Assembly: GCF_002119765.1 (NCBI RefSeq)
Contig: NZ_CP021112.1
Span: 2,350,501-2,414,500, forward strand
Length of the DNA: 64,000 nt
Source: Pseudorhodoplanes sinuspersici
Lineage (GTDB): Bacteria; Pseudomonadota; Alphaproteobacteria; Rhizobiales; Xanthobacteraceae
Reading direction: 5' to 3'
Positions 5,016 to 25,241 of the stretch are shown piece by piece. The notes under the pieces were generated by a model, which saw nothing but the letters and a program-made list of their open reading frames with translations, was not told the DNA's origin and did not search any database. The position numbers and the translations under genes are program-made. Positions within the stretch are counted from its first letter, which is position 1, and the number at the start of each line of letters is the position of its first letter.

Positions 5016-5164
5016 GGAACGTATTCCTCCGGCGGCCGGCAGGACCGCATCGCGCCATTGACAGCGTCGTTTCATTTAACAGAATCGCATTCCAAAATTG
5101 AAATGGCAAATCGAGCGTTCTGCAAGGCAGGCGTCTGGAGCGCGAATGTAAGGAGGATGCGCCT

Positions 5165-7613: not shown

Positions 7614-7700
7614 GATAGTTCCTCGCCCAGCGAGCATGCGTTGCGCCGATTTCTTGCGCCGAATTTAGCAACTCGATATGATGCCATCCAGTGATATGTC

Positions 7701-7717
7701 ATTCCGATAAACGAAAT
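7701..7717. promoter_or_regulatory. Putative IclR-family operator, site A
   Basis: ATTCCGATAAACGAAAT, one of four matching 17-bp palindromes in the block (one mismatch from perfect symmetry). It ends 5 nt before the ATG of the ligase and 88 nt from the divergent MmgE/PrpD start, so binding here could control both. No Shine-Dalgarno is visible for the ligase, which would fit a leaderless transcript. Confidence 0.65.
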
Positions 7718-7722
7718 AGCGT

Positions 7723-9288
7723 ATGACACAGGCGCGACTGACGCAGGGGTTACGGCGCGCGGCACAAGTCAATCCGTCAGGCGTTGCGCTGATCGACGGC
7801 GATGTGCGGCGCACCTGGCGCGACGTGGAGGCGCGCGTGTCGCGGGCTGCGAGTGCCTTGCGTGACGCGGGTCTGAGCGAAGGCGGACGCGTCGCAATTC
7901 TAGCGCATAACAGCCACCGCTATTTCGAAATCTACTACGCGATCCCCTGGGCGGGCGGTGTCATCGTGCCATTGAATCCGCGGCTCGCGTTGCCGGAGAT
8001 GCAATACATCGTCGAGGATTCCGGCGCCGAAATCCTCGTCGTGGACGACAGCTTTCTAGCGATCGGGCAGGCGGTGCGCGAACGCGTGCTATCACTGCGA
8101 TGTGTCATCCACATCTCGGACAATCCCGCACCGGACGGCTTTGCGAGCTATGAAAAGCTTGTCGCCGAGACGCAGTCTGTTGCCGATGCCAACCGGCATG
8201 GCGGCGACCTTGCCGGAATTTTTTATACCGGCGGCAGTACCGGCAAGGCGAAGGGTGTCATGCTCAGTCACGACAACCTCGTCGCCAATGCCGTGAACGG
8301 CTGTTACATGATCGGCTACGATGCGACCACCGTTTATCTGCATGCGGCGCCGATGTGTTATCTCACGGACGGCATGTCGACCCTGTCGGTGACCATGGCG
8401 GCCGGCACACATGTCTTCATCCCGCGCTTCGAGGTCGAGGCCTGCCTGAACGCGATGACCGAGCATCGTGTGACCAATATCGCGCTGGTACCAACGATGA
8501 TCACTATGATCGTCAATTCGCCTGGCATCGAGATGCGCGACATGTCGAGCCTGCGCCAGATCATGTTCGGGTCGTCCCCGATCACCGAGGGGACGTTGAA
8601 GCGCGCGGTCCAGCTATGGCCCGAGATGCGCTTTCTGCACGGTTGGGGCATGACCGAGCTGTCGCCGATCGGCACCATGCTGCCGTACCATCTGCGATTG
8701 CCGCGTGTTGCCGGAGAAAGGCTGAAATCATGCGGTGTCGCTGCGCCCAATATCGAGCTGAAGATTGCGGATAAGCAGGGAAACGAGGTTCCGCGCGGCC
8801 AGATCGGTGAGATCGTGGTGCGCGGCCCTATCGTGATGCAGGGCTACTGGAACAAGCCGGAAGAGACAGCGAAAGCGCTGCGGGACGGCTGGCTGCATAC
8901 CGGTGACGCCGCGATCATGGACGAGGAGGGCCTCGTCTATATCGCCGATCGGTTGAAGGACATGATTATTACCGGTGGCGAGAACGTCTACTCGACCGAA
9001 GTTGAGAATGCGATCTCGCTGATGCCGGAAATCGCGGAGGTGTCGGTGATCGGCATTCCCGATCCGCATTGGGGCGAGTCGGTGCATGCGATCGTGGTTC
9101 CGCGCAACGGCGCGAAGGTCACGCTTGAGTCCGTACAGACGCATTGCCGCACGCTGATCGCCGCCTACAAATGCCCACGCAGCATGGAACTGCGCGATCA
9201 GCCGTTGCCGGTCTCGGCAGCCGGAAAGATCCAGAAAAATGTGCTGCGCGAACCTTACTGGCGCGGCCGGGAAAAGCGGGTGAACTGA
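7723..9288 (+). CDS. AMP-dependent acyl-CoA synthetase (ANL superfamily ligase)
   Basis: Activates a carboxylic acid to its CoA thioester via an acyl-adenylate. P-loop-like motif YTGGSTGKAKG near residue 168, GWGMTELSP near residue 306, GWLHTGDAAIMDEEG near residue 388 and the hinge/A10 region DRLKDMIITGGENVYSTEVE, with the catalytic lysine in AAGKIQKN near the C-terminus. 521 residues, as in medium/long-chain acyl-CoA or cyclohexanecarboxylate-type ligases. The first gene of a rightward unit, with an IclR-type palindrome against its start. In the proposed pathway it would activate the acid made after GMC alcohol oxidation. Acid specificity is not readable. Confidence 0.9.
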   Translation: MTQARLTQGLRRAAQVNPSGVALIDGDVRRTWRDVEARVSRAASALRDAGLSEGGRVAILAHNSHRYFEIYYAIPWAGGVIVPLNPRLALPEMQYIVEDSGAEILVVDDSFLAIGQAVRERVLSLRCVIHISDNPAPDGFASYEKLVAETQSVADANRHGGDLAGIFYTGGSTGKAKGVMLSHDNLVANAVNGCYMIGYDATTVYLHAAPMCYLTDGMSTLSVTMAAGTHVFIPRFEVEACLNAMTEHRVTNIALVPTMITMIVNSPGIEMRDMSSLRQIMFGSSPITEGTLKRAVQLWPEMRFLHGWGMTELSPIGTMLPYHLRLPRVAGERLKSCGVAAPNIELKIADKQGNEVPRGQIGEIVVRGPIVMQGYWNKPEETAKALRDGWLHTGDAAIMDEEGLVYIADRLKDMIITGGENVYSTEVENAISLMPEIAEVSVIGIPDPHWGESVHAIVVPRNGAKVTLESVQTHCRTLIAAYKCPRSMELRDQPLPVSAAGKIQKNVLREPYWRGREKRVN

Positions 9289-9351
9289 TCGCTCGGGCAA
9301 AGCCGCAATCAGCCATGATTAAAGACTACAACGAGGCTGCAGGAGGAAACG

Positions 9352-10290
9352 ATGTCGAATACGGATCTGCCGATTGCGCCGCCTGCCCGGATCGGATTTT
9401 TTGGGCTCGGCGCCATGGGCTGCGGTATGGCGGTCAATCTGGTGCGCGCCGGTTTCACGGTGACCGCCTGCGATCTGTCGGAAGCCGCGCGGAAGGATTT
9501 TGAAGCGCGCTGCGGCGTAAAAGCGACAATGGACGCGCGCGCGGCCTGCGCCGATCAGGATGCGATCGTGACCATGCTGGGTGACGGCAAGGTCGTGCGC
9601 AGCGCCTTGTTCGGCGGCGATGCCCCCATCAAGGCGGCGAATGCGGAGACGTTGCTGATCGACTGTTCCTCGTCCTCGCCCGTCGATACCGAAAATCTCG
9701 CGAAGGATCTCGCGCCTCTGAAAATCTCGCTGATCGATTCACCGGTTTCAGGCGCCGAAAAAGGCGCGAATGAAGGCGCGCTGACCCTCATGGTCGGCGG
9801 TTCGGAAGCTCTGGTGAAGCGTGCGGATCCTATTCTTCGTGCGATGGGCAAGTCGATTTTCCACACCGGGCCGCTCGGCTCCGGCCATGCCATGAAGACG
9901 ATTAACAATTTCATTGCCGGGCTGAATCTCGTTTCGGCGCTGCAAGGCCTTCTGGTAGGGCAGAAATACGGCCTCGATCCGAATCTGATGGTCGACATCG
10001 TGAACGCGTCCTATGGACGCAACGCAGCGACCGAATTCGTGCTCAAGCAGCAGGTCACATCGGGCAAGTTCGCCGCCAATTTCAAGATGTGGTTGGCCGC
10101 CAAGGATGCCCGGGTGATGGAAGAGACCGCGCGGCATGTCGGCTTTACCGCCTCGCTGCCGCGCGACCTGACGGAGGTCTTCTCGCAAGCGGAAAGACAA
10201 TTCGGCCGCGATGCCGATTTCACAAATGTCTATAAATATCTCGATTCGTTCTGGGAGAAGGACAAGGCCACGGCGAAGGGGCGGGGTTGA
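9352..10290 (+). CDS. NAD(P)-dependent beta-hydroxyacid dehydrogenase (3-hydroxyisobutyrate dehydrogenase family)
   Basis: Oxidises a beta-hydroxyacid with NAD(P). Rossmann motif GFFGLGAMGCGMA at about residues 14-26, the substrate-binding segment DSPVSGAEKGA near residue 127, and the catalytic lysine motif GHAMKTINNF near residue 181, all diagnostic for the family. 312 residues, normal. AGGAGGAAAC precedes the ATG. 63 nt downstream of the ligase gene, likely the same transcript. The exact substrate could be 3-hydroxyisobutyrate, tartronate semialdehyde or a pathway-specific hydroxyacid. Confidence 0.88.
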   Translation: MSNTDLPIAPPARIGFFGLGAMGCGMAVNLVRAGFTVTACDLSEAARKDFEARCGVKATMDARAACADQDAIVTMLGDGKVVRSALFGGDAPIKAANAETLLIDCSSSSPVDTENLAKDLAPLKISLIDSPVSGAEKGANEGALTLMVGGSEALVKRADPILRAMGKSIFHTGPLGSGHAMKTINNFIAGLNLVSALQGLLVGQKYGLDPNLMVDIVNASYGRNAATEFVLKQQVTSGKFAANFKMWLAAKDARVMEETARHVGFTASLPRDLTEVFSQAERQFGRDADFTNVYKYLDSFWEKDKATAKGRG

Positions 10291-10296
10291 TTTGCA

Positions 10297-11082
10297 TTAC
10301 GTGCCGGTAAAGACCGGGTTGCGCCGTTCGCGGAACGCGGCGAGACCCTCGCGACCATCGGGACCGTGCGTGACTTCTTTCTGAAAGCGGGCTTCCAATT
10401 CCAACACCTCGTCGAAGCTGCGCTCCTTCAGGAGAATTTGCTTGGTCGCACGGAAGGCCGCGGTTGGGCCGCTGGCGATCAGCGTCGCCAGCTCGGTGGT
10501 ACGCGTCGCAAGCCTGTCCGCAGCAACCGCCTCGTTGATCAGGCCCAGAATGGCGGCCTCGCTGCCGCTGAGCATGCGGCCGGTGAAAACAAGCTCGGCA
10601 GCGCGGTGGCTGCAGAGCCGTCGCTGGAAGAAGTAATGACCGCCTGAATCCAGCACTGCGCCAATGCGGCGGAACGGGCTGCCAAACACCGCATTATCGG
10701 CGGCAATCGTCATGTCGCAGGCGAGCGCGAGACCGAGCCCGAACCCGAGCGCAGGTCCGCCGACCGACGCAATTGTCGGGGCAGGCAGCGTGCGTAGCCG
10801 TTGCAACACTGGGCCGATCTGCCGATGCAGAACTTCGTAGGCGTCCTCTCCGTCGGGATCGATCTCCCGCACGTCGCGCCCAGCACAGAAGCTGCCACCG
10901 ACACCACGAATGACGAGGCACCGTGCAGCCATCACGTGTGCGCTTGCAAGGACGTCTCCCAGTGCCACGATCTCGGTGAGCCGCAAACTGTTGCGTGTAT
11001 CCGGCCGGTCGATTTCCAGCACAAGCACGGGGCCATCTTCGATCAGCCGGAACGGGGTTACGGTCTCCGCCCCGTCAATCAT
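10297..11082 (-). CDS. Enoyl-CoA hydratase/isomerase family protein
   Basis: Crotonase-fold protein of 261 residues. Oxyanion-hole segment GGSFCAGRDVREID near residue 64 and the second conserved block ASVGGPALGFGLGLALACD near residue 105 are present. In the second block the hydratase glutamates are not obvious, so isomerase, hydrolase or another crotonase chemistry is possible. The ATG overlaps the IclR stop as ATGA, so this gene is translationally coupled to its regulator. Convergent with the dehydrogenase gene, only 6 nt apart. Confidence 0.85.
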   Translation of the reverse strand: MIDGAETVTPFRLIEDGPVLVLEIDRPDTRNSLRLTEIVALGDVLASAHVMAARCLVIRGVGGSFCAGRDVREIDPDGEDAYEVLHRQIGPVLQRLRTLPAPTIASVGGPALGFGLGLALACDMTIAADNAVFGSPFRRIGAVLDSGGHYFFQRRLCSHRAAELVFTGRMLSGSEAAILGLINEAVAADRLATRTTELATLIASGPTAAFRATKQILLKERSFDEVLELEARFQKEVTHGPDGREGLAAFRERRNPVFTGT

Positions 11083-11900
11083 GCGCGCGCCCTTCGCCGC
11101 GGTCGCAGCTCGTTACTAGCCGGGAGTTCGGCGACTTCACGATAACCGAGCGCTTTGCTTAGCTCCTTGGCTTTGCCGATGACCAGATTGGCAAGCTGCT
11201 TGTGCATGGACGCCTTGTATCGGATCATCGGCATGGTGATGCCGAGCGAGCCCATCACATTGCCGTCGGCGTCGAACACGACGCGCGCGAAGCCGATTGC
11301 CTCGGGAAATATCTCGCCCTCGGCTGACGCATATCCGCGTTCGCGAATCTCCTCCAGCGCGGCCTTCATGTCCTTGAGGCTTGGCGGTGGATTCCCCGCC
11401 GGCGATTCACCCGCTTCCGCCACGGCCTTACGCACTTCCTCTTCCGGCAGATAGGCCAGCATGCAGCGGCCGACCGCCCCCCACGCGACCTTTTGCTGCA
11501 TGAGCGGCTCGAAATGATAACCGAGCGGATGCGGCGAGCGTGCGACCACCGTGCCGACGAAACGACGCGACGTCGGCAGATACATCGCGAAGTAGCAGGT
11601 CTCCTGGCAGGCATCGCGCAACGCGGTGAGGATTGGGCGCGCGATCTCCTCAAAATCTACCTGGCGAGCGATCAGCGACGATATACGAAACAGCTCCCGC
11701 CCAACGCGGTAGCGCTGGGTCGTGGCCCGTTGCTCGATCAGCCCTTGCGACATCAAGAGCTTCAATAGCCGATGCACCGTACTCGGGGGCAGGGACAAAT
11801 GTGCGGCAAATTCCTTTACCGAGATTTCACCGCCGACCTCGGCGATGCATTGCAGGAGGCGCACCACGCGGACGACGGTGCTGGTTGCTTCTTCCGACAC
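11079..11900 (-). CDS. IclR-family transcriptional regulator
   Basis: DNA-binding regulator with an N-terminal winged helix (VKEFAAHLSLPPSTVHRLLK, about residues 31-50) and a C-terminal IclR effector domain (GRCMLAYLPEEEVRKAV; EGEIFPEAIGFARVVFDADG; MGSLGITMP). I chose the GTG at 11900 because TTTGGAGG lies 9 nt upstream and the resulting 273 residues match the family; ATG 11972 and TTG 12002 give longer forms with no visible ribosome site. It is divergent from the Dpp-type operon and central to the block whose promoters carry matching palindromes, so it is the natural candidate to bind them. Effector unknown; family effectors are often small acids. Confidence 0.88.
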   Translation of the reverse strand: MSEEATSTVVRVVRLLQCIAEVGGEISVKEFAAHLSLPPSTVHRLLKLLMSQGLIEQRATTQRYRVGRELFRISSLIARQVDFEEIARPILTALRDACQETCYFAMYLPTSRRFVGTVVARSPHPLGYHFEPLMQQKVAWGAVGRCMLAYLPEEEVRKAVAEAGESPAGNPPPSLKDMKAALEEIRERGYASAEGEIFPEAIGFARVVFDADGNVMGSLGITMPMIRYKASMHKQLANLVIGKAKELSKALGYREVAELPASNELRPRRRARA

Positions 11901-12072
11901 GTTTGCGATCCTCCAAATGCGGTCCGGCAGGAAATCCTGTTCAGCCTGCGACGATTCGCTAGCGGCTTGCATGGGAGTGGTTGCCAAAACCCGCCAAGTC
12001 AATCCGCTCTTCTCGCTTGCTTCTCCGCTTGTCAGGGCCGCAGTAGCCTTCTATTCTAACAAATGGAAGAAC

Positions 12073-12089
12073 ATTCCGCTAGAAGGAAT
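12073..12089. promoter_or_regulatory. Putative IclR-family operator, site B
   Basis: ATTCCGCTAGAAGGAAT matches sites A, C and D. It ends 8 nt before the ATG of the Dpp-type ATPase gene. A partly overlapping GGAA-N5-TTCC element (about 12065-12077) lies just left of it. It sits between iclR and the operon, as expected for a regulator controlling its neighbour. Confidence 0.65.
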
Positions 12090-12097
12090 GACGCCAC

Positions 12098-14212
<2,115 letters not shown>

Positions 14213-14227
14213 AGGAGACCAAAGCGC

Positions 14228-15178
14228 ATGATCCGCTATGTGTCGAACCGGCTCCTGCTCGCAATTCCGACTCTGATTGGCGTCGCGGTGATTACGTTCT
14301 TCGTGCTGCGCGTGCTTCCGGGTGACATCGTCGAGGCCAAGCTGCGGGGCGATGGCGCGCAGGTCACGCTGGACGTCATCGAGCGGGAGCGGGTACGGCT
14401 CGGCCTCGACAAGCCGCGTTCGGAGCAATTTCTCGACTGGATGAAGGGGCTTGCGCAGTTCGATCTGGGTAAGTCGATGTGGACAGGCCGGCCGGTGATC
14501 GAGGAGGTTGCCGCGCGTTTCGAAATCACCTTCCAGATAGCGATCATGGCGACACTGATCGGCTGCATCATCGCGGTTCCGCTCGGGACGCTGGGGGCGC
14601 TCTACCGAGGAGCCTGGATCGACACGCTGGTTCGGATATTCGCGGTTGCTGGGCTCGCCGTGCCGAGTTTCTGGCTTGGTATGCTGATCATCATGGCTCT
14701 GCTGATGACACTGGGCACGCTTCCGCCCTTGTCGTTTACGCCGATCTACAAGGACCCCGCCGCCAATCTCTGGCAACTCATTTGGCCAGCTCTCGCCGTG
14801 GGTTATCGCTTCTCGGCGGTTCTGACCCGCATCGTGCGATCATCGCTGCTCGAAGTGCTAGGCGAAGACTATATCCGCACGGCGCGTGCGAAAGGCGTTC
14901 TCGAATCCGTCATTGTGCGGCGGCACGCGCTGCGCAACGCGCTGCTACCTGCAGTGACGGTGATCGGTCTCGAATTCGCATTCCTGCTTGGCGGCCTTGT
15001 GGTGACCGAGCAGGTCTTCGGCCTCAATGGACTCGGCAAGCTGTTCGTGCAGAGCGTCACGCGCCATGACTTTACGCTGATCCAGGGGATGGTGATGCTG
15101 TTTGCCATCTTTTATATCCTGACCAATCTCGTCATCGATCTGGTTTACGCTGCGCTTGATCCGCGTGTGCGATATTAG
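14228..15178 (+). CDS. ABC transporter permease, DppB/OppB type
   Basis: 316-residue inner-membrane permease. The N-terminal RYVSNRLLLAIPTLIGVAVI segment, six predicted membrane spans and the EAA loop (about VLGEDYIRTARAKGVLESVI) are typical of DppB. GAAGGAGAC precedes the ATG, and the gene follows the ATPase by 15 nt. Together with DppC it forms the channel for a peptide, glycan-fragment, nickel-chelate or other oligomeric solute; the acyl-CoA context suggests the imported compound feeds that pathway, which is inference. Confidence 0.9.
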   Translation: MIRYVSNRLLLAIPTLIGVAVITFFVLRVLPGDIVEAKLRGDGAQVTLDVIERERVRLGLDKPRSEQFLDWMKGLAQFDLGKSMWTGRPVIEEVAARFEITFQIAIMATLIGCIIAVPLGTLGALYRGAWIDTLVRIFAVAGLAVPSFWLGMLIIMALLMTLGTLPPLSFTPIYKDPAANLWQLIWPALAVGYRFSAVLTRIVRSSLLEVLGEDYIRTARAKGVLESVIVRRHALRNALLPAVTVIGLEFAFLLGGLVVTEQVFGLNGLGKLFVQSVTRHDFTLIQGMVMLFAIFYILTNLVIDLVYAALDPRVRY

Positions 15179-15188
15179 TGAGGGTGTC

Positions 15189-16082
15189 ATGAGCGAGGCC
15201 GCCCTTCCGAAAGAGAAGCGCCCCTTGTGGACTCGCAATCCGCTCGTCGACTTCTGCTTGAAGCAGCCTGCGGGCGCGGTCGCGCTTCTGGTGCTGATCA
15301 TTATGCTATTGGCCGGCGTGTTCGCCGAACGCATCGCGCCCTACGATCCGGTTCGCAACAATCTCGCCAGTATGTTGCAGCCACCGAGTTGGACGCACCT
15401 GCTGGGCACGGATCCGTTCGGTCGTGACATTCTCACGCGCATTATCTACGGCGCGCGGACGGCGTTGATCATAGGCCTGTCGTCGGCGTTTCTCGGCTGC
15501 ACCATCGGCGCGATCATCGGCGCCGCCTCCGCTTATTTCGGAGGGCCGATCGACAACGCGATTCAGCGCGGCATTGATCTGCTGCTATCGTTTCCGCTCA
15601 TCGTGCTGGCGCTCGTCGTAGTGGCGGTGCTTGGCCGCTGGTTGATTTTCGGGGTCGACATCAACCTTATCTTCGCAATCGCGATTCCGATCGTGCCACA
15701 GGTCGCGCGCGTGATCCGCTCGTCGGCGCTCGTGATCCGCAATCTGCCCTATGTCGATGCGGCGCGGATCGCTGGCTATTCCAATACGCGTATCGTGCTG
15801 CGCCACATGATTCCCAATTTGATGGCGCCTTATCTGATCATGCTCACCGCCTATGTCGCGCAGGCAATTCTGCTCGAAGCGGTGCTGTCGTTCCTCGGGC
15901 TCGGCGTCGCTGAGCCAGTCCCGGCCTGGGGACTGATGCTGTCGGGCAGTGCTTCGGATTTCTTCGAGGAGGCACCCTGGATCGTGATCTTTCCGGGGCT
16001 TGCGATCAGTCTCGCGGTGTTCGCGTTCAACCTGCTCGGCGACGCACTGCGCGATTGGCTTGATCCGAAATTCAAGACGTAA
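15189..16082 (+). CDS. ABC transporter permease, DppC/OppC type
   Basis: About 297 residues. An N-terminal cytoplasmic part, the LLGTDPFGRDILTRIIYGAR signature of DppC, then membrane spans and the EAA loop LPYVDAARIAGYSNTRIVLR. Starts at ATG 15189 (GTGAGGGTGTC upstream), 10 nt after the DppB stop; an in-frame upstream start at 15156 would overlap DppB and is less likely. Last gene of the importer operon. Confidence 0.9.
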   Translation: MSEAALPKEKRPLWTRNPLVDFCLKQPAGAVALLVLIIMLLAGVFAERIAPYDPVRNNLASMLQPPSWTHLLGTDPFGRDILTRIIYGARTALIIGLSSAFLGCTIGAIIGAASAYFGGPIDNAIQRGIDLLLSFPLIVLALVVVAVLGRWLIFGVDINLIFAIAIPIVPQVARVIRSSALVIRNLPYVDAARIAGYSNTRIVLRHMIPNLMAPYLIMLTAYVAQAILLEAVLSFLGLGVAEPVPAWGLMLSGSASDFFEEAPWIVIFPGLAISLAVFAFNLLGDALRDWLDPKFKT

Positions 16083-16232
16083 CGTGTCGTCACTCCGGGA
16101 CGCACCATGGCAGGCAAGTTTACGCCGCTTGCGCACACTTGGCTGGGGGAGCGCGGGTCCGGAATCCTGGGGCCAACAACTTAGCGCTCGTAGCTCTGGA
16201 TTGCGGGTTCGCTGGCTACGCCCGGGCGCCGG

Positions 16233-17834
16233 TTACCTCCTCGCATCCTCCCGAATCATCGCGGCGCCCTTCTCGCCGATCATGATGGTCGGTGCGTTGG
16301 TATTGCCGGTCGTGATCCGCGGCATGATAGAGGCGTCGACCACGCGAAGGCCGTCGACGCCGTGAACGCGCAGACGCGGATCGACCACGGCTTTTGGGTC
16401 GATTCCCATCCGGCAAGTGCCGACGGGATGGAACACGGTGGTTGTGTGCATACGCGCGAATTCGGTCAACGCCGCGTCGTCCTGCGCCGCGAATCCGGGC
16501 ACCGTTTCGGTCACTACGGCGTCGGCGATCGCCGGCTGTGCAAAGATGTGGCGTGCAAGCCGGATGCCTTTCAGCGTCACATCCATGTCCTCTGGAGCAG
16601 AAAAATAGTTCGGCCGGATCTCCGGCGCGCGCTTCGGATCGGGGGAGACTGCCATGATCGTTCCGCGGCTTTCCGGATTGACGGCACAGACCGCGGCCGT
16701 CATCCCAGGTTCGTGTTCAAGCTCGCCGAAGCGGCTCCTATCATAGCTTCCGGGCGTGAACAGGATTTGCAGGTCGGGACTGATACGGCCCTCACGCATG
16801 CGCGCGAACACGCTTGCAGTTGAAACTCCGAAGGTGAGCGCGCCGGTCCCGAATAGGCACCAACGCGCTATCTCGCGCATGAGCAGCGTACCGCGCCGGA
16901 GTTGGTTCACCGATATCTCGCCGCGAACGCGATATGCGAGCAGAGCCGCAAGATGGTCTATCAGGTTCGCTCCAACACCGGGAAGGTCGTGCACCACCGC
17001 AACACCGATCGATCGCACATGCGCCGCCGGACCGATCCCGGAGAGTTGCAGGAGCTGTGGCGAGTTTACGGCTCCACCACAAACGATCACTTCGCGTCTG
17101 GCGCGCGCCTGCACGACGGAGCCGCCGCGATCGTATTCCACTCCGGCCGCGCGACGGCCGTCGAACAGGATGCGCCGCGCGAGCGCGTTGGTCTCGACGC
17201 CCAGGTTGCTCCGGCGGCGCGATGGCTGCAGGAAAGCACGCGCGCTGGAGTGGCGGAAGCGCCGATTGCGACTCATCTGTGAGTAACCGACACCTTCCGG
17301 CTGCGACCCGTTGTGATCTGGTGTGAACGGCACGCCGGCCTGTTGTGCCGCTTTCACAAAGCGATGCGTCAACGGCAGAATGGTCCGGTAATCCTCGACT
17401 GCCATTACGCCATCGCGGCCGCGATAGGTATCTTCGCCACCGATACGTCGCTCGGATTTCTTGAAAAAGGGCAGCACGTCGGCGGAACTCCAACCCGTGC
17501 AGCCCATCTGTGCCCAGCCATCATAATCGGCGGGATGACCGCGCAAATAAAGCATGCCGTTGATCGAGCTCGATCCGCCGAGCACCTTGCCACGTGGCCA
17601 GCCGAGCGCTCGATGGCCGATGCCAGGCTCAGGTTCGCTCATGTAATTCCAGTTCACCACGGGATGGCGCAGCAGCGTCACCATTCCGGCCGGGATGTGA
17701 ATCATCGGCCGCCAGTCGGCGGGGCCTGCTTCAAGCAGCAGGACGCGATGGCCATCTTCGGAGAGCCGCGCGGCTACCACGCAGCCCGCCGAGCCGGCAC
17801 CGACGACGATGAAGTCAGCCTCAGGTGTATCCAT
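16233..17834 (-). CDS. GMC-family FAD-dependent alcohol oxidoreductase, second paralogue
   Basis: 533 residues. FAD motif GAGSAG at residues 12-17, GKVLGGSSSINGMLYLRGHP near residue 85, catalytic HPVGTCRMG (His about 469) and Asn about 511 in TTGNTNAP. Same family as the gene at 3372-5015 but clearly diverged in the middle, so the two may act on different alcohols or successive steps. Lies 60 nt downstream of the Dpp-type binding-protein gene on the same strand, suggesting co-expression of uptake and oxidation. Confidence 0.9.
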   Translation of the reverse strand: MDTPEADFIVVGAGSAGCVVAARLSEDGHRVLLLEAGPADWRPMIHIPAGMVTLLRHPVVNWNYMSEPEPGIGHRALGWPRGKVLGGSSSINGMLYLRGHPADYDGWAQMGCTGWSSADVLPFFKKSERRIGGEDTYRGRDGVMAVEDYRTILPLTHRFVKAAQQAGVPFTPDHNGSQPEGVGYSQMSRNRRFRHSSARAFLQPSRRRSNLGVETNALARRILFDGRRAAGVEYDRGGSVVQARARREVIVCGGAVNSPQLLQLSGIGPAAHVRSIGVAVVHDLPGVGANLIDHLAALLAYRVRGEISVNQLRRGTLLMREIARWCLFGTGALTFGVSTASVFARMREGRISPDLQILFTPGSYDRSRFGELEHEPGMTAAVCAVNPESRGTIMAVSPDPKRAPEIRPNYFSAPEDMDVTLKGIRLARHIFAQPAIADAVVTETVPGFAAQDDAALTEFARMHTTTVFHPVGTCRMGIDPKAVVDPRLRVHGVDGLRVVDASIMPRITTGNTNAPTIMIGEKGAAMIREDARR

Positions 17835-17894
17835 ATTTCCAGACAGGAAGCGGCGGAGCTACGGCTCATTTTCCTCATTGACCTACGCGAGCGG

Positions 17895-19475
17895 TCACCG
17901 GTCGAACCAGACGTCGGCCATATCGAGATTGAGCACGGTGGTCGGTGCGAGCTTCCAGCCCTTGAACTCCTTCACCGCTGCGGTTGCGCGGTTATTTCCG
18001 AATAATGGGATCGAGTAGCCCTGATCCATGAGACGCTCGAGGAATTGCCGCGCCACCATCTTGCGCTCGTCCTGATCCGTCATCCCCGCCTGCTTGTCGA
18101 ACAGTTCGACCAGCGCCTTGTCATCCGCACCGGAATAATTGTTCGGACTGCCAGGAATGAACTTCACAAGCACCTCATTTGGATCGACACTGACCGTATT
18201 GTTGAAGTCGATCGCCACATCGTAATTACCGCTTGTGAGCGCCGCGAAATATTGCGGTGTTTCCGCTGGAATCTGATCAACCTCGATGCCGATCTGGCGC
18301 CACTGGTCCATGATGTAGATGCCGAGCGGTTGCCAGGGCAGGCGGACGTTGCGGTTCAGCAGCGTGAGTTTCAGATTGGGTACGCCTGCTTCCGCAAGTA
18401 AGCGCTTGGCCTCCGCCCGCTGCTTGTCCATATCGAGGCTATAACCGGGCAGCTTCGCCATCTCCTCCTTGGTGTAGGCGATGGGGCTTGCCGGCGGCAC
18501 GAAGACGGTCGGGAATTCGAGCGTTGCGAGTTTCGAAAGGCTCGGGATTCCGCCCCATCGGTCGATTGCGAGGCTCAACGCCTTGCGCACGCGCGGATCG
18601 CTAAAGGGGGCTTTACGCACATTCACGGTCAAGAAATTCGTGATGTTGAAAGAGTTCGTGTGAAATACTACTTGATCCCCGCGCTGATTCTTCAGCCGCG
18701 TGAGATCGGGCGGCGCCACCTGAAATAGCAGCGCATCGACTTGCCCGCCTGCGAGCGCATTGATCACGCCGGGACCGTTGATGAAGAAGCCGCGGATGCC
18801 ATCAAGATAGGGTTTGCCCTTCTGAAAATAATTGTCGAAGCGCTTTGCCGACCAGTGCGAGCCCTTGACATATTCCTCGAAAACGAACGGGCCTGTTCCC
18901 ATCACGTTGGTGTTGTAGAAGGTCTGATCGGCGGCGAGCTTCTTTGCCGAATAAACACAGTTCCACGGATTTGCGAACATGTAGAGCGCGGCCGGATTGA
19001 CACGCTTCAGCTTGAACACGACGGTGTCGCCCGATGGCGTCTCAATCGAAGCGATGCTTTCGAACTGGCCCTTGCGCGCCGACGTGATGCCTTGCGGCGG
19101 ATCGCGCAGGCGGTCGAAAGTTGCTTTAATGTCGGCGGACGAAAGCTCGCTGCCGTCATGGAATTTCACATCCGGCTTGAGCTTGAAGGTGTAGCTCAGC
19201 CGGTCCGGCGCCATCGTCCAGGAATCGGCGAGATCGCCAGTGATCTTCGAGAAATCATTGGGGTCGTACTTCAGCAGCGTCGAGTAATGCGGCGCCAGCA
19301 CTTGCAGCGCAAACGATGTCGCCGCTGCGTGGCAGTCAAAACTCGACGGTTCACCTTCGATCACATGCCTAAGAACACCGCCGCGTTTAGGCGTCTCGCC
19401 GGCGGCACCGGTCGCAATCGTGACCGAGATTGTGATGCAGGCAAAACCTTTCGCGATATGAGCGAGACTTCGCAT
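17895..19475 (-). CDS. ABC transporter substrate-binding protein, DppA/OppA (SBP_bac_5) family
   Basis: Periplasmic binding protein, about 526 residues. The ATG at 19475 is preceded by GGGAGG and starts a signal peptide (RSLAHIAKGFACITISVTIATGAAGE). Mature family hallmarks: KRGGVLRHVIEGEPSSFD, LADSWTMAPDRLSYTFKLK, VKFHDGSELSSADIKATFDR and the later ARFLRP-like region DPRVRKALSLAIDR. The longer frame to 19763 only adds untranslated sequence across the promoter. It is the missing partner of the permease/ATPase operon at 12098-16082. Operator site C lies 73 nt upstream. Confidence 0.9.
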   Translation of the reverse strand: MRSLAHIAKGFACITISVTIATGAAGETPKRGGVLRHVIEGEPSSFDCHAAATSFALQVLAPHYSTLLKYDPNDFSKITGDLADSWTMAPDRLSYTFKLKPDVKFHDGSELSSADIKATFDRLRDPPQGITSARKGQFESIASIETPSGDTVVFKLKRVNPAALYMFANPWNCVYSAKKLAADQTFYNTNVMGTGPFVFEEYVKGSHWSAKRFDNYFQKGKPYLDGIRGFFINGPGVINALAGGQVDALLFQVAPPDLTRLKNQRGDQVVFHTNSFNITNFLTVNVRKAPFSDPRVRKALSLAIDRWGGIPSLSKLATLEFPTVFVPPASPIAYTKEEMAKLPGYSLDMDKQRAEAKRLLAEAGVPNLKLTLLNRNVRLPWQPLGIYIMDQWRQIGIEVDQIPAETPQYFAALTSGNYDVAIDFNNTVSVDPNEVLVKFIPGSPNNYSGADDKALVELFDKQAGMTDQDERKMVARQFLERLMDQGYSIPLFGNNRATAAVKEFKGWKLAPTTVLNLDMADVWFDR

Positions 19476-19547
19476 CAAAACCTCCCTTGCGGCGATGATT
19501 CGTAAATCGCGCGTCTGCAGGAGCCGGCGAATGACGATATCGCGCTG

Positions 19548-19564
19548 ATTCCGTTTATCGGAAT
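19548..19564. promoter_or_regulatory. Putative IclR-family operator, site C
   Basis: ATTCCGTTTATCGGAAT: the arms are perfect, ATTCCG pairing with CGGAAT. It is 73 nt upstream of the binding-protein start and 78 nt past the stop of the enoyl-CoA hydratase gene, a normal operator position. Confidence 0.7.
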
Positions 19565-19641
19565 CATGTTCCTTACAATGGAGTCTACTGATCCAGCTGC
19601 GCCAGCGCAATCCAGTCGATGCCGTATCGAGCTTATTTGTC

Positions 19642-20436
19642 TCACTCGCCGCGATCGATCTTGTCACGAAACTGCGGCGCTTGCCGGGAGGAAAAGGCCT
19701 GCACGGCGGCCGCCAGATCGAAGGATGTTGCAAGCCGCGCGCCACCTTCGCGCGCCATTGCAAGTGCCTCCGTTTCGCTCAGGTCTAAGGCCGCGTCGAT
19801 CGCGCGCTTGGCATATTGCATGGCAAGCGCCGGTCCGGCCGCCAACTTCCGCCCAAGTGCCATGCTTTCCGCCGAAAAATCGGCCTGCGGCACAACGCGT
19901 GCAATGAGTCCCCAGGCGAGCGCCGTCGCCGAATCGATCGGATCGCCGAGCAGCATCAATTGCCGCGTGCGCGCTGGACCCACCAGACGCGTGACCCGCA
20001 GTGTTCCTCCCGCGACCGGCATGGCGCCGAGCTTGATTTCCGGGAGCCCGAAGCGCGCGCCTTCGCTTGCGAGAATAAAGTCGCAGCATACAGCAAGCTC
20101 AAGTCCGCCACCGAGCGCGAACCCTTCTACTACGGCCAACGTCGGCTTGCGGCAATGGGCGAGCCGATCGAACAGCTCTGCGTCGCGCTCGAGCTGTGCA
20201 AGCGTCTTTTCTGCCGAGCCGAGCGTTTGTGAGATTTCGCCAATGTCGAAGCCGGCACAGAATGCTTTCGGGCCATCCCCGCGCAGGATGATTGCGCGGA
20301 TGCTGTCGTCATTTTCGAACTGACAGATGCGCTCCAACAGTTCCACGCGCATCGCGGCAGTAAGCGCGTTCATCGGCGGCGCCGAGATGATCGCGGTGGC
20401 GATGCCTTCCGCGACGTCGACGATGATATGACCCAT
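19642..20436 (-). CDS. Enoyl-CoA hydratase/isomerase family protein
   Basis: 264-residue crotonase. AFCAGFDIGEISQ near residue 62 (oxyanion hole) and VVEGFALGGGLELAVCCD near residue 102, with the Glu of GGGLELA in the place of the first hydratase glutamate; the second block reads ARFGLPEIKLGAMPVAGGT, which supplies the second glutamate. So this copy looks like a true hydratase, unlike the one at 10297. It is the last gene of a four-gene leftward unit with thiolase, FadB-like and quinone-oxidoreductase-like genes; it starts 32 nt after the previous stop. Confidence 0.88.
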   Translation of the reverse strand: MGHIIVDVAEGIATAIISAPPMNALTAAMRVELLERICQFENDDSIRAIILRGDGPKAFCAGFDIGEISQTLGSAEKTLAQLERDAELFDRLAHCRKPTLAVVEGFALGGGLELAVCCDFILASEGARFGLPEIKLGAMPVAGGTLRVTRLVGPARTRQLMLLGDPIDSATALAWGLIARVVPQADFSAESMALGRKLAAGPALAMQYAKRAIDAALDLSETEALAMAREGGARLATSFDLAAAVQAFSSRQAPQFRDKIDRGE

Positions 20437-20468
20437 GACGATCCCTACGTCCGCAAGGGACGCCTTGT

Positions 20469-21482
20469 TCAGTCGATCTCGATGCAGACCTTGCCGACAT
20501 GCTTGCCGGCCTGCAACCAGGCCAGCGCCTCCGGAAGTTCAGTCAGCGGAAAAACCCGGTCGACGACTGGCTTGATCGCATGGTGTTCGATGGCGCGCAG
20601 CATGTCCGCAAATTGCCGCCGGTTGCCGAGCGCGACCCCCACGACCTTTAGAAGGTTCATTGTGATCAGCGGCAAGGGCAGATCGAGCGATGGTCCGGCG
20701 ACAACCCCGATCAATGGGATGGTTCCACCGAGCTTCGTGGCGCGGATGGACTGCTTGATGGTACCGGCGCCGCCCACTTCAACCACAAGGTCGACACCGC
20801 GGCCTTTCGTGAGTTTACGCGCAGTTTTTCCCCATTCGGCGTCGTCACGATAATTGATCACGTGATCGGCGCCAAGAGAGCGCAATCTTCGGAGCTTTTC
20901 TTCGCTGGATGACGTTGCGATTACAGTGGCGCCTGCGGCCTTTGCAAATTGCAGGGCGAACAGCGACACGCCACCGGTCCCCTGCGTGAGCACAACATGC
21001 TCGGGTCCGGTCTTGTGCGCGGCGCGCACGGCGCTCCACGCCGTCAATGCCGCGCAGGGCAGCGTCGCCGCCTCTACAAAGCTGAGCTGTGGCGGGATTG
21101 GGAGGATCGCATCGCTGTTGAAAACGCGATACTGGCACGCCATACCATCGGCGAGGCCACCCGGCGCATCACGCAAAAGATAGTCCTGCGGCTCGCCATT
21201 CTGCCAGAACGGGAAGAAGCAGCCGACCACGCGATCGCCAACCTTCCATTCCTTCACGCCCGCACCAATCTCGGCGATCTCGCCGGCGCCGTCGGAGAGA
21301 AGGATCAGATTCTCACGCCGCTGCATTGAGCCATATTTGCCGTCGAGCGTGAGCAGATCGCGATAGTTTAACGATGCGGCATGCAGGCGCACCAGCACCT
21401 GCCCGGGACCGGGCCTTGGATCGGGCAAGTCTTGCAGGGCCAGGTTCGAAAGACCCAATCCGCCCATCACCATGGCTTTCAT
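20469..21482 (-). CDS. MDR-family NAD(P)H:quinone oxidoreductase/enoyl reductase-like protein
   Basis: About 337 residues of the medium-chain dehydrogenase/reductase superfamily, quinone-oxidoreductase branch. GroES-like N-terminal domain (ASLNYRDLLTLDGKYG), nucleotide-binding motif VLTQGTGGVSLFALQFAKAAG near residue 170, ATSSSEEKLRRLRSLGADHV. The cysteine quartet of the structural-zinc alcohol dehydrogenases is not seen, so it is probably zinc-free. ATG 21482 has CGGAG upstream. In a beta-oxidation setting it could reduce an enoyl thioester or a ketone; no direct evidence. Confidence 0.82.
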   Translation of the reverse strand: MKAMVMGGLGLSNLALQDLPDPRPGPGQVLVRLHAASLNYRDLLTLDGKYGSMQRRENLILLSDGAGEIAEIGAGVKEWKVGDRVVGCFFPFWQNGEPQDYLLRDAPGGLADGMACQYRVFNSDAILPIPPQLSFVEAATLPCAALTAWSAVRAAHKTGPEHVVLTQGTGGVSLFALQFAKAAGATVIATSSSEEKLRRLRSLGADHVINYRDDAEWGKTARKLTKGRGVDLVVEVGGAGTIKQSIRATKLGGTIPLIGVVAGPSLDLPLPLITMNLLKVVGVALGNRRQFADMLRAIEHHAIKPVVDRVFPLTELPEALAWLQAGKHVGKVCIEID

Positions 21483-21530
21483 CAACCGACTCCGTTGCTC
21501 GCAGACGCGCTGATACCGGCGCTCCTTGGA

Positions 21531-23645
21531 TCACACGTCATGGAACTTGCGATTGTCCCTTGCCATCTCGAGCAGCATCGCCGGCGGCTCGTAGCGGCCG
21601 CCGAAAAGATCGGCGAGTTCGTGGGCGCGGTGCGCGAAAGCCGATGCGCCCACGCGATCGACAAAAGAGAACACACCGCCAAGATGGGCGGGAAAGCCCC
21701 AACCAAGCACTGATGCCAGATCACCGTCGATCGGCCGCGTGACCACGCCGTCTTCCAGCGTGCGGATCGCCTCAAGCGATTGCGTGAACAGCAGCCGGTC
21801 GCGCACGGTTGCTTCGTCGAGCGAAGACGGTTTCGTACCGAGGCAGGCGGAAAGGCCATCCCACGGCTCGCGTGTCTCGCCATTATAGGTGTAGATGCCG
21901 TTGCCTTTTGCCTTGCCGACGCGTTCGTCCGCGGCAAGTTTAGCGACTGTCTCGCGCGCAACACTGCCGCGATCGGCTGCGCGCCGACCATTGCCACGCA
22001 TAGAAGCAAAGATGTCCTTCAATAGCGGCATGGTGACGAGATCGCAAAGTGAGATAGGGCCCATGGCGAAGCCAGCATTGACCGCGGCATTATCGATGAG
22101 CTGGGGTGTCACTCCATCGGCGAGCAGGTTCATCGCCTCGCTGGAATAGGTCGTAACGACACGGCTGGTGAAGAAGCCGAGGCCGTCATTCACCACGACG
22201 GGCGTTTTGTCGATGCGCTTCAGGAAGTCCAAGGCACGCGCGAGGATCTCATCCGACGTTGCGCCTGCTCTGATGACCTCGACAAGCTGCATGCGCTCAA
22301 CCGGCGAGAAGAAATGCAGCCCAAGAATACAGGAGGGATCAGGTAGAGCCGAGGCGAGATTGGTGATCGGGATGCTCGAGGTGTTGCTCGCGATTGGGGT
22401 GCCAGGCCGGATCGCTGCGGCAGCCTTGGCCAGCACGTCACGCTTGAGATCCGGACGTTCGAAAACCGCTTCCACCACGATGTCGCTTTGGCCGATATCG
22501 GCGTAGCTCATAGTCGGGTAGATGCGGCCGACGACATCCGCCACCGTCCCGCGTAAGTGCCCCCGCTCGTGGTCTCGCTCGGCAATTCGTGTAATGGCAT
22601 CTTTTGCCTTGGCTGCGATGTCCGCCGAAATATCGACGAGATTGACCTCCATGCCAGCCATGGCAGAGACATACGCTATGCCGCGTCCCATCACGCCGCC
22701 GCCGATCACGGCGACGCGCGCTGGCTTGCTCACGGGCACGTTCTTCGGGCGCATCTTCATGGCGCGGGCATTGGCGGTACCGACGAACAGCGTGCGAATC
22801 TTGGCTTTGGCATCGAACGATGCCGCAAGCCGCGCAAAATGCCGGGTCTCGATGGCGATGCCGGCATCGATACTGCGCTCGGTACCGTGGTGCAGCACCT
22901 GCAATATTGCTTCGCTCGCGAGATCGCAGCCGGCGCTGCGCTTGTGCAGCCGCGCCCAGCTCGCGAGGAAGAATTGCCGGCCTTCGGGCGATTGCGGCGC
23001 GAAGCCCGGGAGTCTGAAGCTTTTCATGTCCCACAGCTGTGCCGGATTTGAGCTGGCCAGCACCCAGGCCTTCGCCTCGTCGAGCAATCGCTCGGGCTGG
23101 ACGATGGCATCGATGAGGCCGGCGGCCAATGCATCCGCTGGCTTCAGCCGCTTGCCTTCGAGCAAGAGCGGGGTCGCCGCGGCAAGGCCGATCAGGCGGG
23201 GGAGGCGCTGCGTACCGCCGCCGCCGGGCATCAGCCCGAGCGTTACTTCGGGCAGGCCGAAGCGTGCAGAAGGTTGATCGGCGGCGATGCGACGGTGACA
23301 GGCAAGCGCCAGCTCAAAGCCGCCGCCGAGCGCCGTGCCGTTCAGCGCCGCGACCACAGGCTTGCCGCCGGTCTCGAGCTTGCGAATAGCCTTCAGGAAC
23401 GGAGTGACGATAGCGATAGCATCCGCCGGCGTTTGCACTGCGCGCAGTTCGTCGAGATCGCCGCCCGCCAGGAAATCCCGTTTGTCTGATGACAGCACGA
23501 TGCCTTTGACAGACGGCTCGGCGAGTAGTTCATCGATCAGTGCCGCAAATCGTTCGTTGTCGGCGCGGCCGAGTGTATTCACCGGCCCGTCGCCGCTGAA
23601 GAGAACGAGGACGACGCCGTCGCCGAGATTCTTTCTTGTAATCAT
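21531..23645 (-). CDS. Fused enoyl-CoA hydratase/3-hydroxyacyl-CoA dehydrogenase (FadB/FadJ-like)
   Basis: 704 residues with two catalytic halves of beta-oxidation. N-terminal crotonase: KRDFLAGGDLDELRAVQ, ALNGTALGGGFELALACH (Glu present) and RFGLPEVTLGLMPGGGGTQRLPR. From about residue 305: Rossmann VAVIGGGVMGRGIAYVSAMAG, ASNTSSIPIT, LHFFSPVERMQLVEVI with the catalytic His, and VVNDGLGFFTSRVVTTYSSE. A trailing domain (NAAVNAGFAMGPISLCDLV; LGWGFPAHLGGVFSFVDRVG) completes the FadJ-like shape. Between thiolase and oxidoreductase genes, 9 nt from the thiolase stop. Confidence 0.93.
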   Translation of the reverse strand: MITRKNLGDGVVLVLFSGDGPVNTLGRADNERFAALIDELLAEPSVKGIVLSSDKRDFLAGGDLDELRAVQTPADAIAIVTPFLKAIRKLETGGKPVVAALNGTALGGGFELALACHRRIAADQPSARFGLPEVTLGLMPGGGGTQRLPRLIGLAAATPLLLEGKRLKPADALAAGLIDAIVQPERLLDEAKAWVLASSNPAQLWDMKSFRLPGFAPQSPEGRQFFLASWARLHKRSAGCDLASEAILQVLHHGTERSIDAGIAIETRHFARLAASFDAKAKIRTLFVGTANARAMKMRPKNVPVSKPARVAVIGGGVMGRGIAYVSAMAGMEVNLVDISADIAAKAKDAITRIAERDHERGHLRGTVADVVGRIYPTMSYADIGQSDIVVEAVFERPDLKRDVLAKAAAAIRPGTPIASNTSSIPITNLASALPDPSCILGLHFFSPVERMQLVEVIRAGATSDEILARALDFLKRIDKTPVVVNDGLGFFTSRVVTTYSSEAMNLLADGVTPQLIDNAAVNAGFAMGPISLCDLVTMPLLKDIFASMRGNGRRAADRGSVARETVAKLAADERVGKAKGNGIYTYNGETREPWDGLSACLGTKPSSLDEATVRDRLLFTQSLEAIRTLEDGVVTRPIDGDLASVLGWGFPAHLGGVFSFVDRVGASAFAHRAHELADLFGGRYEPPAMLLEMARDNRKFHDV

Positions 23646-23654
23646 GCGCTGTTC

Positions 23655-24863
23655 TCAAACCCGTTCGATCAGCGTGGCGACGCCCATGCCAAGACCGACG
23701 CACAGCGTGACAACGCCATGCTTGCCGCCGGTGCGCTCAAGTTCGTCCAGCAGTGTGCCGGTCAGGATCGTACCCGTTGCACCGATCGGATGGCCGAGCG
23801 AGATGGCGCCGCCATTGACGTTGACCCGGTCATGCGACACGCCGGTCTCCTGCATGAAATGCAGCACCACTGACGCGAAGGCTTCATTCACCTCGAACAG
23901 ATCAATATCGTCGAGAGTCAGACCAGCACGTGAAAGGCATTTGCGGGTAGCGTCGACCGGAGCAGTAAGCATCAGACACGGATCGCAGCCGACCGTCGCA
24001 AAGCTCACAAAGCGCGCGCGGGGCTTCAAATCGAGTTCGCGTCCCAGTTTCTCTGATCCCAGCAGGATGGCGGAGGCGCCGTCCACAATCCCCGCCGAGT
24101 TTCCGGCCGTGTGAACATGATTGAGGCGGTTTACCTGCGGATAACGTTTGCGCACGGTGTCGCCGAAACCGCCTTTGGTCGCCATGCCCTCAAAGGCGGG
24201 CTTCAGCTTGGCGAGCGAGGCTACGTCGGTATTTGGACGTGGGTGCTCGTCGCGCGCAAGACACAGCGTGCCGTTGAAGTCGTTCACGGGGATAATGGAC
24301 CGTGCAAAGCGTCCGTCGTTCCAGGCACGCGCCGCTCGCTTCTGCGATTCCACGGCATAAGCGTCAACATCGTCGCGGGTATGGCCATCGAGTGTGGCGA
24401 CCAGGTCGGCGGCGACGCCGAGCGGCGCGTAATTGGTAAGGGTGTTGAATTCGGCGTCGCTGCCCCAAGGTCCGCCGGTACCCCCAATCGGGACGAGCGA
24501 CATCATCTCGACGCCGCCCGCGATCATGCAATCGGCTTGCCCAGCCATGATGCGCGCGGCTGCCGCATTCGATGCGTCAAGCCCGGACGAACAGAAGCGC
24601 GTCACGACGGAGCCGGAAATGCGCTCGTCAAAGCCCGCGCGCAGCAGCGATGAGCGCGCAAGGTCGGCACCCTGGTCTTCAACCGGATCGCCGCAGCCGA
24701 ATACAACATCGTCGATATCAGCGCGGTCGCAGCCGGTGCGTTCGGCAAGCGCCGTCAGCACGGTGGCGCCAAGGTCGATCGGAGATAATGTATGGAGACC
24801 TCCGCTCGGACGGCCGGCGCCGCGCGGCGTCCGCAGCGCGTCATATATGAATGCATCGGCCAT
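23655..24863 (-). CDS. Acetyl-CoA C-acyltransferase (thiolase)
   Basis: 402 residues; cleaves 3-ketoacyl-CoA with CoA. Nucleophile Cys91 in TRFCSSGLDAS, catalytic His about 358 in GHPIGATG and Cys about 388 in TLCVGLGMGV. The N-terminal IYDALRTPRGAG and NGGAISLGHP blocks are classic thiolase II. Preceded by GGAAGGATCC and, 50 nt upstream of the ATG, by operator site D. First gene of the unit thiolase, FadB-like, oxidoreductase, hydratase. Confidence 0.93.
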   Translation of the reverse strand: MADAFIYDALRTPRGAGRPSGGLHTLSPIDLGATVLTALAERTGCDRADIDDVVFGCGDPVEDQGADLARSSLLRAGFDERISGSVVTRFCSSGLDASNAAAARIMAGQADCMIAGGVEMMSLVPIGGTGGPWGSDAEFNTLTNYAPLGVAADLVATLDGHTRDDVDAYAVESQKRAARAWNDGRFARSIIPVNDFNGTLCLARDEHPRPNTDVASLAKLKPAFEGMATKGGFGDTVRKRYPQVNRLNHVHTAGNSAGIVDGASAILLGSEKLGRELDLKPRARFVSFATVGCDPCLMLTAPVDATRKCLSRAGLTLDDIDLFEVNEAFASVVLHFMQETGVSHDRVNVNGGAISLGHPIGATGTILTGTLLDELERTGGKHGVVTLCVGLGMGVATLIERV

Positions 24864-24912
24864 CGTGGATCCTTCCCATCCTGCTGGTCGGAGGCCACCA
24901 AGGAATATTGTT

Positions 24913-24929
24913 GTTCCGATAAACGGAAT
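24913..24929. promoter_or_regulatory. Putative IclR-family operator, site D
   Basis: GTTCCGATAAACGGAAT; on the minus strand it reads ATTCCGTTTATCGGAAC, matching site C at 16 of 17 positions. Lies 50 nt upstream of the thiolase start, so it would gate the whole beta-oxidation unit. Confidence 0.7.
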
Positions 24930-25076
24930 TACATTTCAAAATGATAGCGGCTCGGCTGATCGCTTTCAAGGCGCATAATCGGTTCAGACCTGTGAACTGC
25001 GAGGGTCGGAGGTCGCTGCGAGGTCAGAGAGCGAGCGACGTGATGCAGCGATCCATGGACCGATGCGCCATGGATC

Positions 25077-25241
25077 GTGTTGATGCACGGCGTCGCGGAG
25101 GCAAGCGACGCCTGGTTCGCATGGGTCGTGCCCGGCGCATTACGCGACCGCCACGTCAAGGTCGGTCAGCATATCCCACCCGACCCCGATGGGCTGAAAG
25201 CCTACCTCGATCGTTTCGTGGAAGCCTACACCGCGCGGCCT
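25077..25241 (+). pseudogene. Fic-family protein fragment
   Basis: A short frame reads MHGVAEASDAW, VVPGALRDRHVKVGQHIPP and DPDGLKAYLDRFVEAY. The pattern PG-x-x-R-x5-VxVGxHIPPxP followed by an amphipathic helix is the segment that precedes the catalytic domain in many Fic proteins. The HPFxxGNGR active site is absent, and the frame runs into opposite-strand integrase debris, so only a scrap remains. Identification rests on a short motif. Confidence 0.4.

What the first reader, a model, noticed from the sequence alone, without database searches (positions are those of the whole stretch)
7701..24929. Four near-identical 17-bp palindromes define a putative IclR regulon across 17 kb
Sites at 7701 (ATTCCGATAAACGAAAT), 12073 (ATTCCGCTAGAAGGAAT), 19548 (ATTCCGTTTATCGGAAT) and 24913 (GTTCCGATAAACGGAAT) share ATTCCG-N5-CGGAAT symmetry. 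Each lies before a different unit: ligase/MmgE, Dpp importer, binding protein, thiolase-FadB operon. The only regulator in the block is the IclR gene at 11079-11900. Uptake, alcohol oxidation, CoA activation and beta-oxidation would then be switched together.
Basis: partly seen in the sequence, partly recalled or inferred. Interest (0 to 1): 0.78.

Follow-up and report, generated by a model that had tools for sequence, protein, structure and literature searches.

The report
IclR operators controlling a catabolic cluster
Four short mirror-image DNA sites in front of uptake and breakdown genes look like docking sites for a nearby IclR-type switch protein, so one signal probably turns the whole pathway on; this is a well-made but ordinary bacterial control circuit, with the twist that a second cluster far away in the same genome uses the same site with its own related switch.

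Summary
The four palindromes are real and lie in promoter regions. Three are almost one sequence (TTCCGATAAACGGAA in either orientation, at most 1 mismatch); 12073 is 3 mismatches away. In the 5.97-Mb genome this 15-mer occurs at 6 places with at most 1 mismatch: three here, three in a second catabolic cluster 2.1 Mb away holding an IclR paralogue (37% identical, similar recognition helix). A same-genus genome with a 42% homologue has an exact copy in that cluster. A weaker second palindrome lies exactly 20 bp from the main one at 5 of the 8 sites of these three clusters, a sixth marginal, as published for tandem IclR sites; 0 of 200,000 random-offset draws reached the score. The weak 12073 site has such a partner. 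The motif approximates the published WTT-11-AAW class of IclR sites. A weaker fifth site (5069-5105) is a candidate only. New member of a known kind; binding and inducer are untested.

The parts
7701..7717 (.). operator O1 (ATTCCGATAAACGAAAT) between mmgE (-) and the acyl-CoA ligase (+); only a degenerate partner at 7681-7697
   Evidence: partner tail p 0.03
12073..12089 (.). operator O2 (ATTCCGCTAGAAGGAAT), weak main palindrome between iclR (-) and the Dpp-type importer (+)
12053..12069 (.). tandem partner of O2 (ATTCTAACAAATGGAAG), centres 20 bp apart; overlaps a promoter-like -10 (12052-12057) of the importer genes
19548..19564 (.). operator O3 (ATTCCGTTTATCGGAAT), perfect palindrome upstream of the binding-protein gene
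19568..19584 (.). tandem partner of O3 (GTTCCTTACAATGGAGT), centres 20 bp apart
24913..24929 (.). operator O4 (GTTCCGATAAACGGAAT) upstream of the thiolase-fadB operon, 11 bases downstream of a promoter-like TTGAAA-17-TATCAT (24969-24941, - strand); no convincing partner
5069..5105 (.). tentative fifth operator (GTTTCATTTAACAGAAT plus imperfect partner) between a GMC oxidoreductase (-) and a DUF3237 gene (+)
   Evidence: best match in the window away from the four sites, 9.6 bits, E 0.11; not among genome-wide matches at E<=10, where 150 of 319 candidates were scored
11079..11900 (-). iclR: likely regulator (GTG start with GGAGG upstream); overlaps the next gene by 4 bp
   Evidence: Pfam IclR_C and HTH_IclR on the longer frame 11079-12002; start read from sequence
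10297..11082 (-). enoyl-CoA hydratase, presumably cotranscribed with iclR
   Evidence: cotranscription inferred
6213..7613 (-). MmgE/PrpD-family protein
   Evidence: start read from sequence
7723..9288 (+). acyl-CoA ligase (AMP-forming)
9352..10290 (+). 3-hydroxyisobutyrate-dehydrogenase-like protein
12098..14212 (+). fused two-ATPase peptide/Dpp-type ABC protein
14228..15178 (+). ABC permease 1
15156..16082 (+). ABC permease 2
16233..17834 (-). GMC oxidoreductase (choline-dehydrogenase-like)
17895..19475 (-). family-5 solute-binding protein
   Evidence: start read from sequence
19642..24863 (-). presumed operon: thiolase (23655-24863), FadB-like (21531-23645), MDR alcohol dehydrogenase/reductase (20469-21485), enoyl-CoA hydratase (19642-20436)
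   Evidence: operon inferred from strand and spacing

Best explanation
The palindromes are operators of an IclR-family regulator, most likely the local one at 11079-11900. Inferred mechanism: without inducer, IclR dimers bind the main palindrome and, where present, the weaker palindrome 20 bp away on the same DNA face, as a tetramer. This covers the promoters of mmgE, ligase-dehydrogenase, iclR-hydratase, Dpp importer, binding protein-GMC oxidase and thiolase-fadB, and represses them. A pathway substrate or CoA intermediate binds the C-terminal domain and releases all units together, iclR included. Shown here: the sites, their positions, tandem spacing, genome-wide restriction and association with IclR genes. 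Inferred: binding, sign of control, inducer.
For: The motif approximates the WTT-11-AAW class (WTTYCRYW3RYGRAAW) of Suvorova & Gelfand 2021: 19548 and 7701 depart at one spacer position (compared by eye). The 15-mer at up to 1 mismatch occurs at only 6 genomic places, in two clusters each with one IclR homologue. A model of the 37-bp tandem operator finds in the own genome at E<=10 only its 7 training places there (12 rows, the other 5 being overlapping opposite-strand matches; 150 of 319 candidates scored). Tandem partner at exactly 20 bp at 5 of 8 sites of the three related clusters; of 14 sites scanned none has one at offsets 14-19 or 21-28; 0 of 200,000 draws reach the summed score. The same-genus homologue's cluster has an exact operator. 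Of 6 places found by the model in other genomes and not used to build it, 5 lie upstream of the open frame of an IclR gene, within about 10-225 bp. Promoter-like elements of the importer and thiolase units overlap or abut the operators. Site centres lie at -14 to -96 from the controlled genes, iclR itself -181.
Against: No binding or expression data. The 15-mer, exact or with 1 mismatch, also sits before IclRs with quite different recognition helices (LDKSKASRLL, LPKTTAHRLL), so it does not identify the regulator. The local iclR's own operator is the weakest of the four. 7701 and 24913 lack convincing tandem partners. Sites of other IclRs show partner-like matches at other offsets (29 and 36 in L151, 37 in L151 and L152). 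The Pseudolabrys MAG with a 41% homologue (L066) shows no such site in 12.4 kb. Two of four regions gave no sigma-70-like promoter. Another G000 IclR (L036) has a helix one residue from the paralogue's and its 3-kb locus holds nothing above 9.9. IclR gene L052 has a nearby match of 15.0, slightly above O2 at 14.7. G082 and G543 contig 15 have a site without an IclR found.
Confidence: 0.82

Rival explanations
1. The sites are shared by two regulators: the IclR paralogue of the second cluster (genome 224882-225742) also binds the window sites, so the two catabolic clusters are cross-regulated.
For: Same 15-mer core, same 20-bp tandem layout, similar recognition helices (LPPSTVHRLL and LPASTVHRLL), 37% overall identity.
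Against: Each cluster has its own iclR; outermost bases tend to differ (window A/G...T, second cluster T...A or T), hinting at insulation, but on only 4 and 3 sites.
Confidence: 0.3
2. IclR acts as an activator at some of these operators rather than as a repressor.
For: IclR-family members can activate (PcaU and PobR, recalled); some sites are 58-96 bp upstream of start codons.
Against: At the importer and the ligase the centre is only 14-17 bp from the start codon, and the two predicted promoters overlap or abut the operators.
Confidence: 0.2
3. Chance palindromes or terminator stems, not regulatory sites.
For: Loose arms are common in this GC-rich genome; 19546-19566 is flagged as terminator-like.
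Against: Fifteen-base identity, promoter placement, tandem spacing and recurrence upstream of IclR genes; the flagged stem is the palindrome itself, upstream of a gene start.
Confidence: 0.03

Closest known systems
Group-1 WTT-11-AAW IclR-family binding motifs (Suvorova & Gelfand 2021, PMC8222616; outline with abstract, passages and the Results section read)
   Same: Arms TTYCR/YGRAA, 17 bp, odd spacing, AT-rich centre; tandem sites with centres 18-22 bp apart; transport genes such as DdpA-DppBCD among IclR-regulated sets
   Different: The common core GATAAAC/GTTTATC departs at one spacer position; the 20-bp partner is weaker than the main site in each case where it is found except O2, where both are weak
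PheR of Sphingobium, an IclR repressor of phenanthrene uptake and catabolism (PMC13273656; search listing and passages seen)
   Same: One IclR repressor linking uptake and catabolism
   Different: Core element GCAACG and an aromatic pathway; protein not compared here
BhcR, KdgR, IclR, PcaR/PcaU/PobR regulators
   Same: IclR HTH plus IclR_C domain; NCBIfam hits to BhcR (102 bits) and KdgR (82 bits); the two solved chains at E<=1e-10 are 5y6i KdgR and 1mkm IclR
   Different: All six NCBIfam hits at E<=1e-10 are far below their cut-offs (350, 275 and so on), so it is none of these named regulators

Membership tests
IclR-family transcription factor (protein at 11079-11900) | N-terminal HTH_IclR and C-terminal IclR_C domains | tested here: met
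   PF09339 49.6 bits (cut-off 22) and PF01614 58.7 bits (cut-off 24), run on the longer frame 11079-12002
Group-1 (WTT-11-AAW) IclR operator | WTTYCRYW3RYGRAAW consensus | tested here: met
   approximately, compared by eye with the consensus: 19548 and 7701 depart at one spacer position, 24913 at one spacer position and the outermost base, 12073 at two positions
Group-1 (WTT-11-AAW) IclR operator | tandem palindromes 18-22 bp apart (feature of many, not all, groups) | tested here: met
   exact 20 bp at 5 of 8 sites of the three clusters, a sixth marginal; in the window 2 of 4
Group-1 (WTT-11-AAW) IclR operator | physical binding by the cognate IclR | not testable with these tools
   needs EMSA or footprint
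BhcR / KdgR / PcaR-PcaU-PobR models of NCBIfam | score above the curated cut-off | tested here: not met
   102.1 of 350, 81.6 of 275, 50.1 of 284.75 bits

The most novel reading that the evidence does not exclude
Two paralogous IclR regulators with similar DNA-reading helices and interchangeable 37-bp tandem operators tie two unrelated catabolic clusters 2.1 Mb apart (peptide-type ABC plus beta-oxidation, and TctC-type binding proteins plus MmgE/SDR) into one cross-regulated network, in which the inducer of either pathway can prime or silence the other.
Probability: 0.25. Interest if true: 0.45.

Novelty: new member of a known kind. Interest (0 to 1): 0.3.

Why it matters
It gives an uncharacterised catabolic cluster a defined control circuit and a short list of probably coregulated genes, which helps to find its substrate. 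It also offers a natural pair of paralogous regulators with almost the same operator in one cell, on which insulation versus cross-talk can be tested. The tandem 20-bp layout turns one weak site into a credible one.

Tried and rejected
Arms alone as proof: rejected, because at 2 mismatches the window is not enriched and other arms reach the same count. Footprinting on orthologous clusters: among 397 genomes drawn from the order, 6 (this one included) have a relative of the binding protein at E<=1e-120, the best outside this genome 45% identical, and 5 of 397 (this one included) have IclR matches at E<=1e-45; so conservation was tested on regulators and operators, not on the whole cluster. One search kept the best 80 of 164 loci; apart from L066 (41%) all are 22-35% identical, many from other phyla, and only L066 was examined further. 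The IclR loci of G040, G193, G310 and G340 have other helices; of these, L165 (G340) has a 1-mismatch site and three arm-perfect ones, L167 (G310) an arm-perfect one, the others none. The second paralogue of the binding protein (L208) has no operator. Recognition-helix identity as sole proof: weakened because L036 differs from the paralogue by one residue and because other helices carry the same 15-mer. G082 (40.0 of 40.4 kb of its contig read) and G543 contig 15 (20 of 33 kb) have a site but no IclR found by my HTH profile. Named regulators rejected by score. A first literature search with narrow terms returned no paper.

Full report
Observation. The four sequences are exactly where stated. 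Three are one sequence: TTCCGATAAACGGAA at 24913 (+) and 19548 (-), and with one mismatch at 7701 (+). The 12073 site keeps the arms with one mismatch but has another spacer (three mismatches from the 15-mer). Arms alone are weak evidence: at up to 2 mismatches the window has 6 against a shuffle mean of 4.31, and 26 of 100 shuffles reach 6; the other 11 of the 12 best-counted arms printed also reach 4-5 copies. At up to 1 mismatch the arm pattern has 39 places in the genome, giving a Poisson P of about 4e-6 for four in 17.2 kb.

Genome scan. The full 15-mer at up to 1 mismatch has 6 places in 5.97 Mb (expected about 0.24 from base composition): three in the window and three at 225780, 229658 and 233290. 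At exactly 2 mismatches 6 further places appear; the backwards-read control gives 4 forward and 5 reverse matches at up to 2 mismatches, its split by mismatch not being shown. Three of the 6 were looked at and lie inside ORFs of my simple caller; the other three were not examined.

Second cluster. The only other homologue of the window IclR in this genome at E<=1e-30 (38%, 37%) is at 224882-225742. The three second-cluster sites lie within 8 kb of it: between it and a TctC-type binding-protein gene, between an SDR gene (start at L027 16631) and an MmgE gene, and upstream of another TctC-type gene. The two clusters share only distant homologues (MmgE 31%, HIBADH-like 25%), so they are hardly a recent duplication. 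Of 61 genomes searched, 3 have a match; in the same-genus genome G007 the homologue (42%) sits in a cluster with molybdenum-hydroxylase/CO-dehydrogenase-like subunits, thiolase and MFS genes, with an exact operator about 6 kb away between the CoxG and MFS genes.

Tandem architecture. With a PWM trained on main sites, a second palindrome appears exactly 20 bp away (centre to centre) at 12073, 19548, two second-cluster sites and the G007 site with tail p<0.002, and marginally at the third second-cluster site (p 0.0046). None of the 14 sites scanned shows one at offsets 14-19 or 21-28; sites of other IclRs ring at 29 and 36 (L151) and 37 (L151 and L152). Over the 8 sites of the three clusters, offset 20 scores 32.0 against -39.1 for the next best of 134 offsets, and 0 of 200,000 random-offset draws reach it. 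7701 and 24913 have only degenerate partners. Suvorova & Gelfand 2021 (PMC8222616; outline with abstract, passages, Results section read) describe the WTT-11-AAW class and tandem spacing of 18-22 nt, mainly 19-21, and connect it with tetramer binding.

Whole-genome model. A sequence model of the 37-bp operator (8 sites) finds in the own genome at E<=10 only its 7 training places there, in 12 rows of which 5 are overlapping opposite-strand matches; 150 of 319 first-look candidates were scored. Finding the training sites is by construction; the absence of others is the result, within that cap. In 198 family genomes it rings in 7 (stricter filters, 34 candidates scored per listed genome). Of the 6 places not used to build it (G025, G067, G090, G550, two in G543), 5 are upstream of the open frame of an IclR gene, within about 10-225 bp; the G550 gene is a weak profile match (E 1.5e-6). 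Of 6 of 100 genomes with the exact 15-mer, 5 have an IclR gene in the stretch fetched, G082 not. Some of these IclRs have different recognition helices, so the 15-mer is a generic good IclR site rather than a signature of this regulator.

Which IclR. 39 HTH_IclR matches were listed and 30 examined. In their 3-kb loci the best matches are the paralogue's promoter site (26.9), a match near L052 (15.0, role unclear) and the window gene's O2 (14.7); the rest are at most 11.2. L055 has TTCCG arms with a different spacer in its promoter. The helix of L036 is one residue from the paralogue's, but its locus holds nothing above 9.9. The local IclR is therefore the best but not the proven binder.

Mechanism. 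Start codons read from ribosome-binding sites put site centres at -14 (ligase), -17 (importer), -58 (thiolase), -81 (binding protein), -96 (MmgE) and -181 (iclR). For the ligase and the importer the starts are the ORF starts, without a strong ribosome-binding site. A promoter-like TTGTCA-17-TATTCT (12029-12057) runs into the operator pair at 12053-12089, and TTGAAA-17-TATCAT (24969-24941) ends 11 bases before the operator at 24929; the other two regions gave none. These are consensus matches only. They fit repression relieved by a pathway compound, with autoregulation. The substrate remains open; the enzymes suggest an alcohol or acid taken up by a peptide-type importer, oxidised, activated to CoA and beta-oxidised (inference).

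Extension. A weaker tandem-like site at 5069-5105 lies between the likely start of a GMC oxidoreductase (5015) and a DUF3237 gene (5165). It is the best match in the window away from the four sites (9.6 bits, E 0.11) but is not among the genome-wide matches at E<=10, so it is a candidate only.

Verdict. A well-supported, ordinary IclR regulon: new member of a known kind. The shared operator of two paralogous regulators is the part worth an experiment. Searches for the exact sequence and for Pseudolabrys with IclR found no paper in the held library, which lacks most subscription journals; the organism of the window was not identified here.

Noticed in passing
window 25000-25780: Stretch upstream of the thiolase operon that reads like decayed coding remnants; my simple caller kept one 161-aa ORF there (25226-25711, -), which was not examined.
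   Followed up: no
window 28898-28934: Pair-like match to the operator inside the fumarylacetoacetate-hydrolase-type gene; probably chance.
   Followed up: partly
L042 and L049 (G000 1894387 and 308678): Two other IclR genes carry perfect TGTTCG-N5-CGAACA palindromes just upstream, resembling the published TGT-11-ACA class.
   Followed up: no
L055 / L170 (G000 23461-23477): IclR gene with GTTCCGCACCGCGGAAT in its own promoter: same arms, different spacer.
   Followed up: partly
L151 8355 and 10014, L152 10059: IclR with helix LDKSKASRLL in two genomes of another genus, with the exact 15-mer about 50 bp upstream, no 20-bp tandem partner but a partner-like match at 37 bp.
   Followed up: partly
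L165 1533, 1820, 6847 and 6927: Four arm-perfect TTCCG-N5-CGGAA sites within 6 kb of two IclR genes in G340, a possible further regulon of this kind.
   Followed up: no
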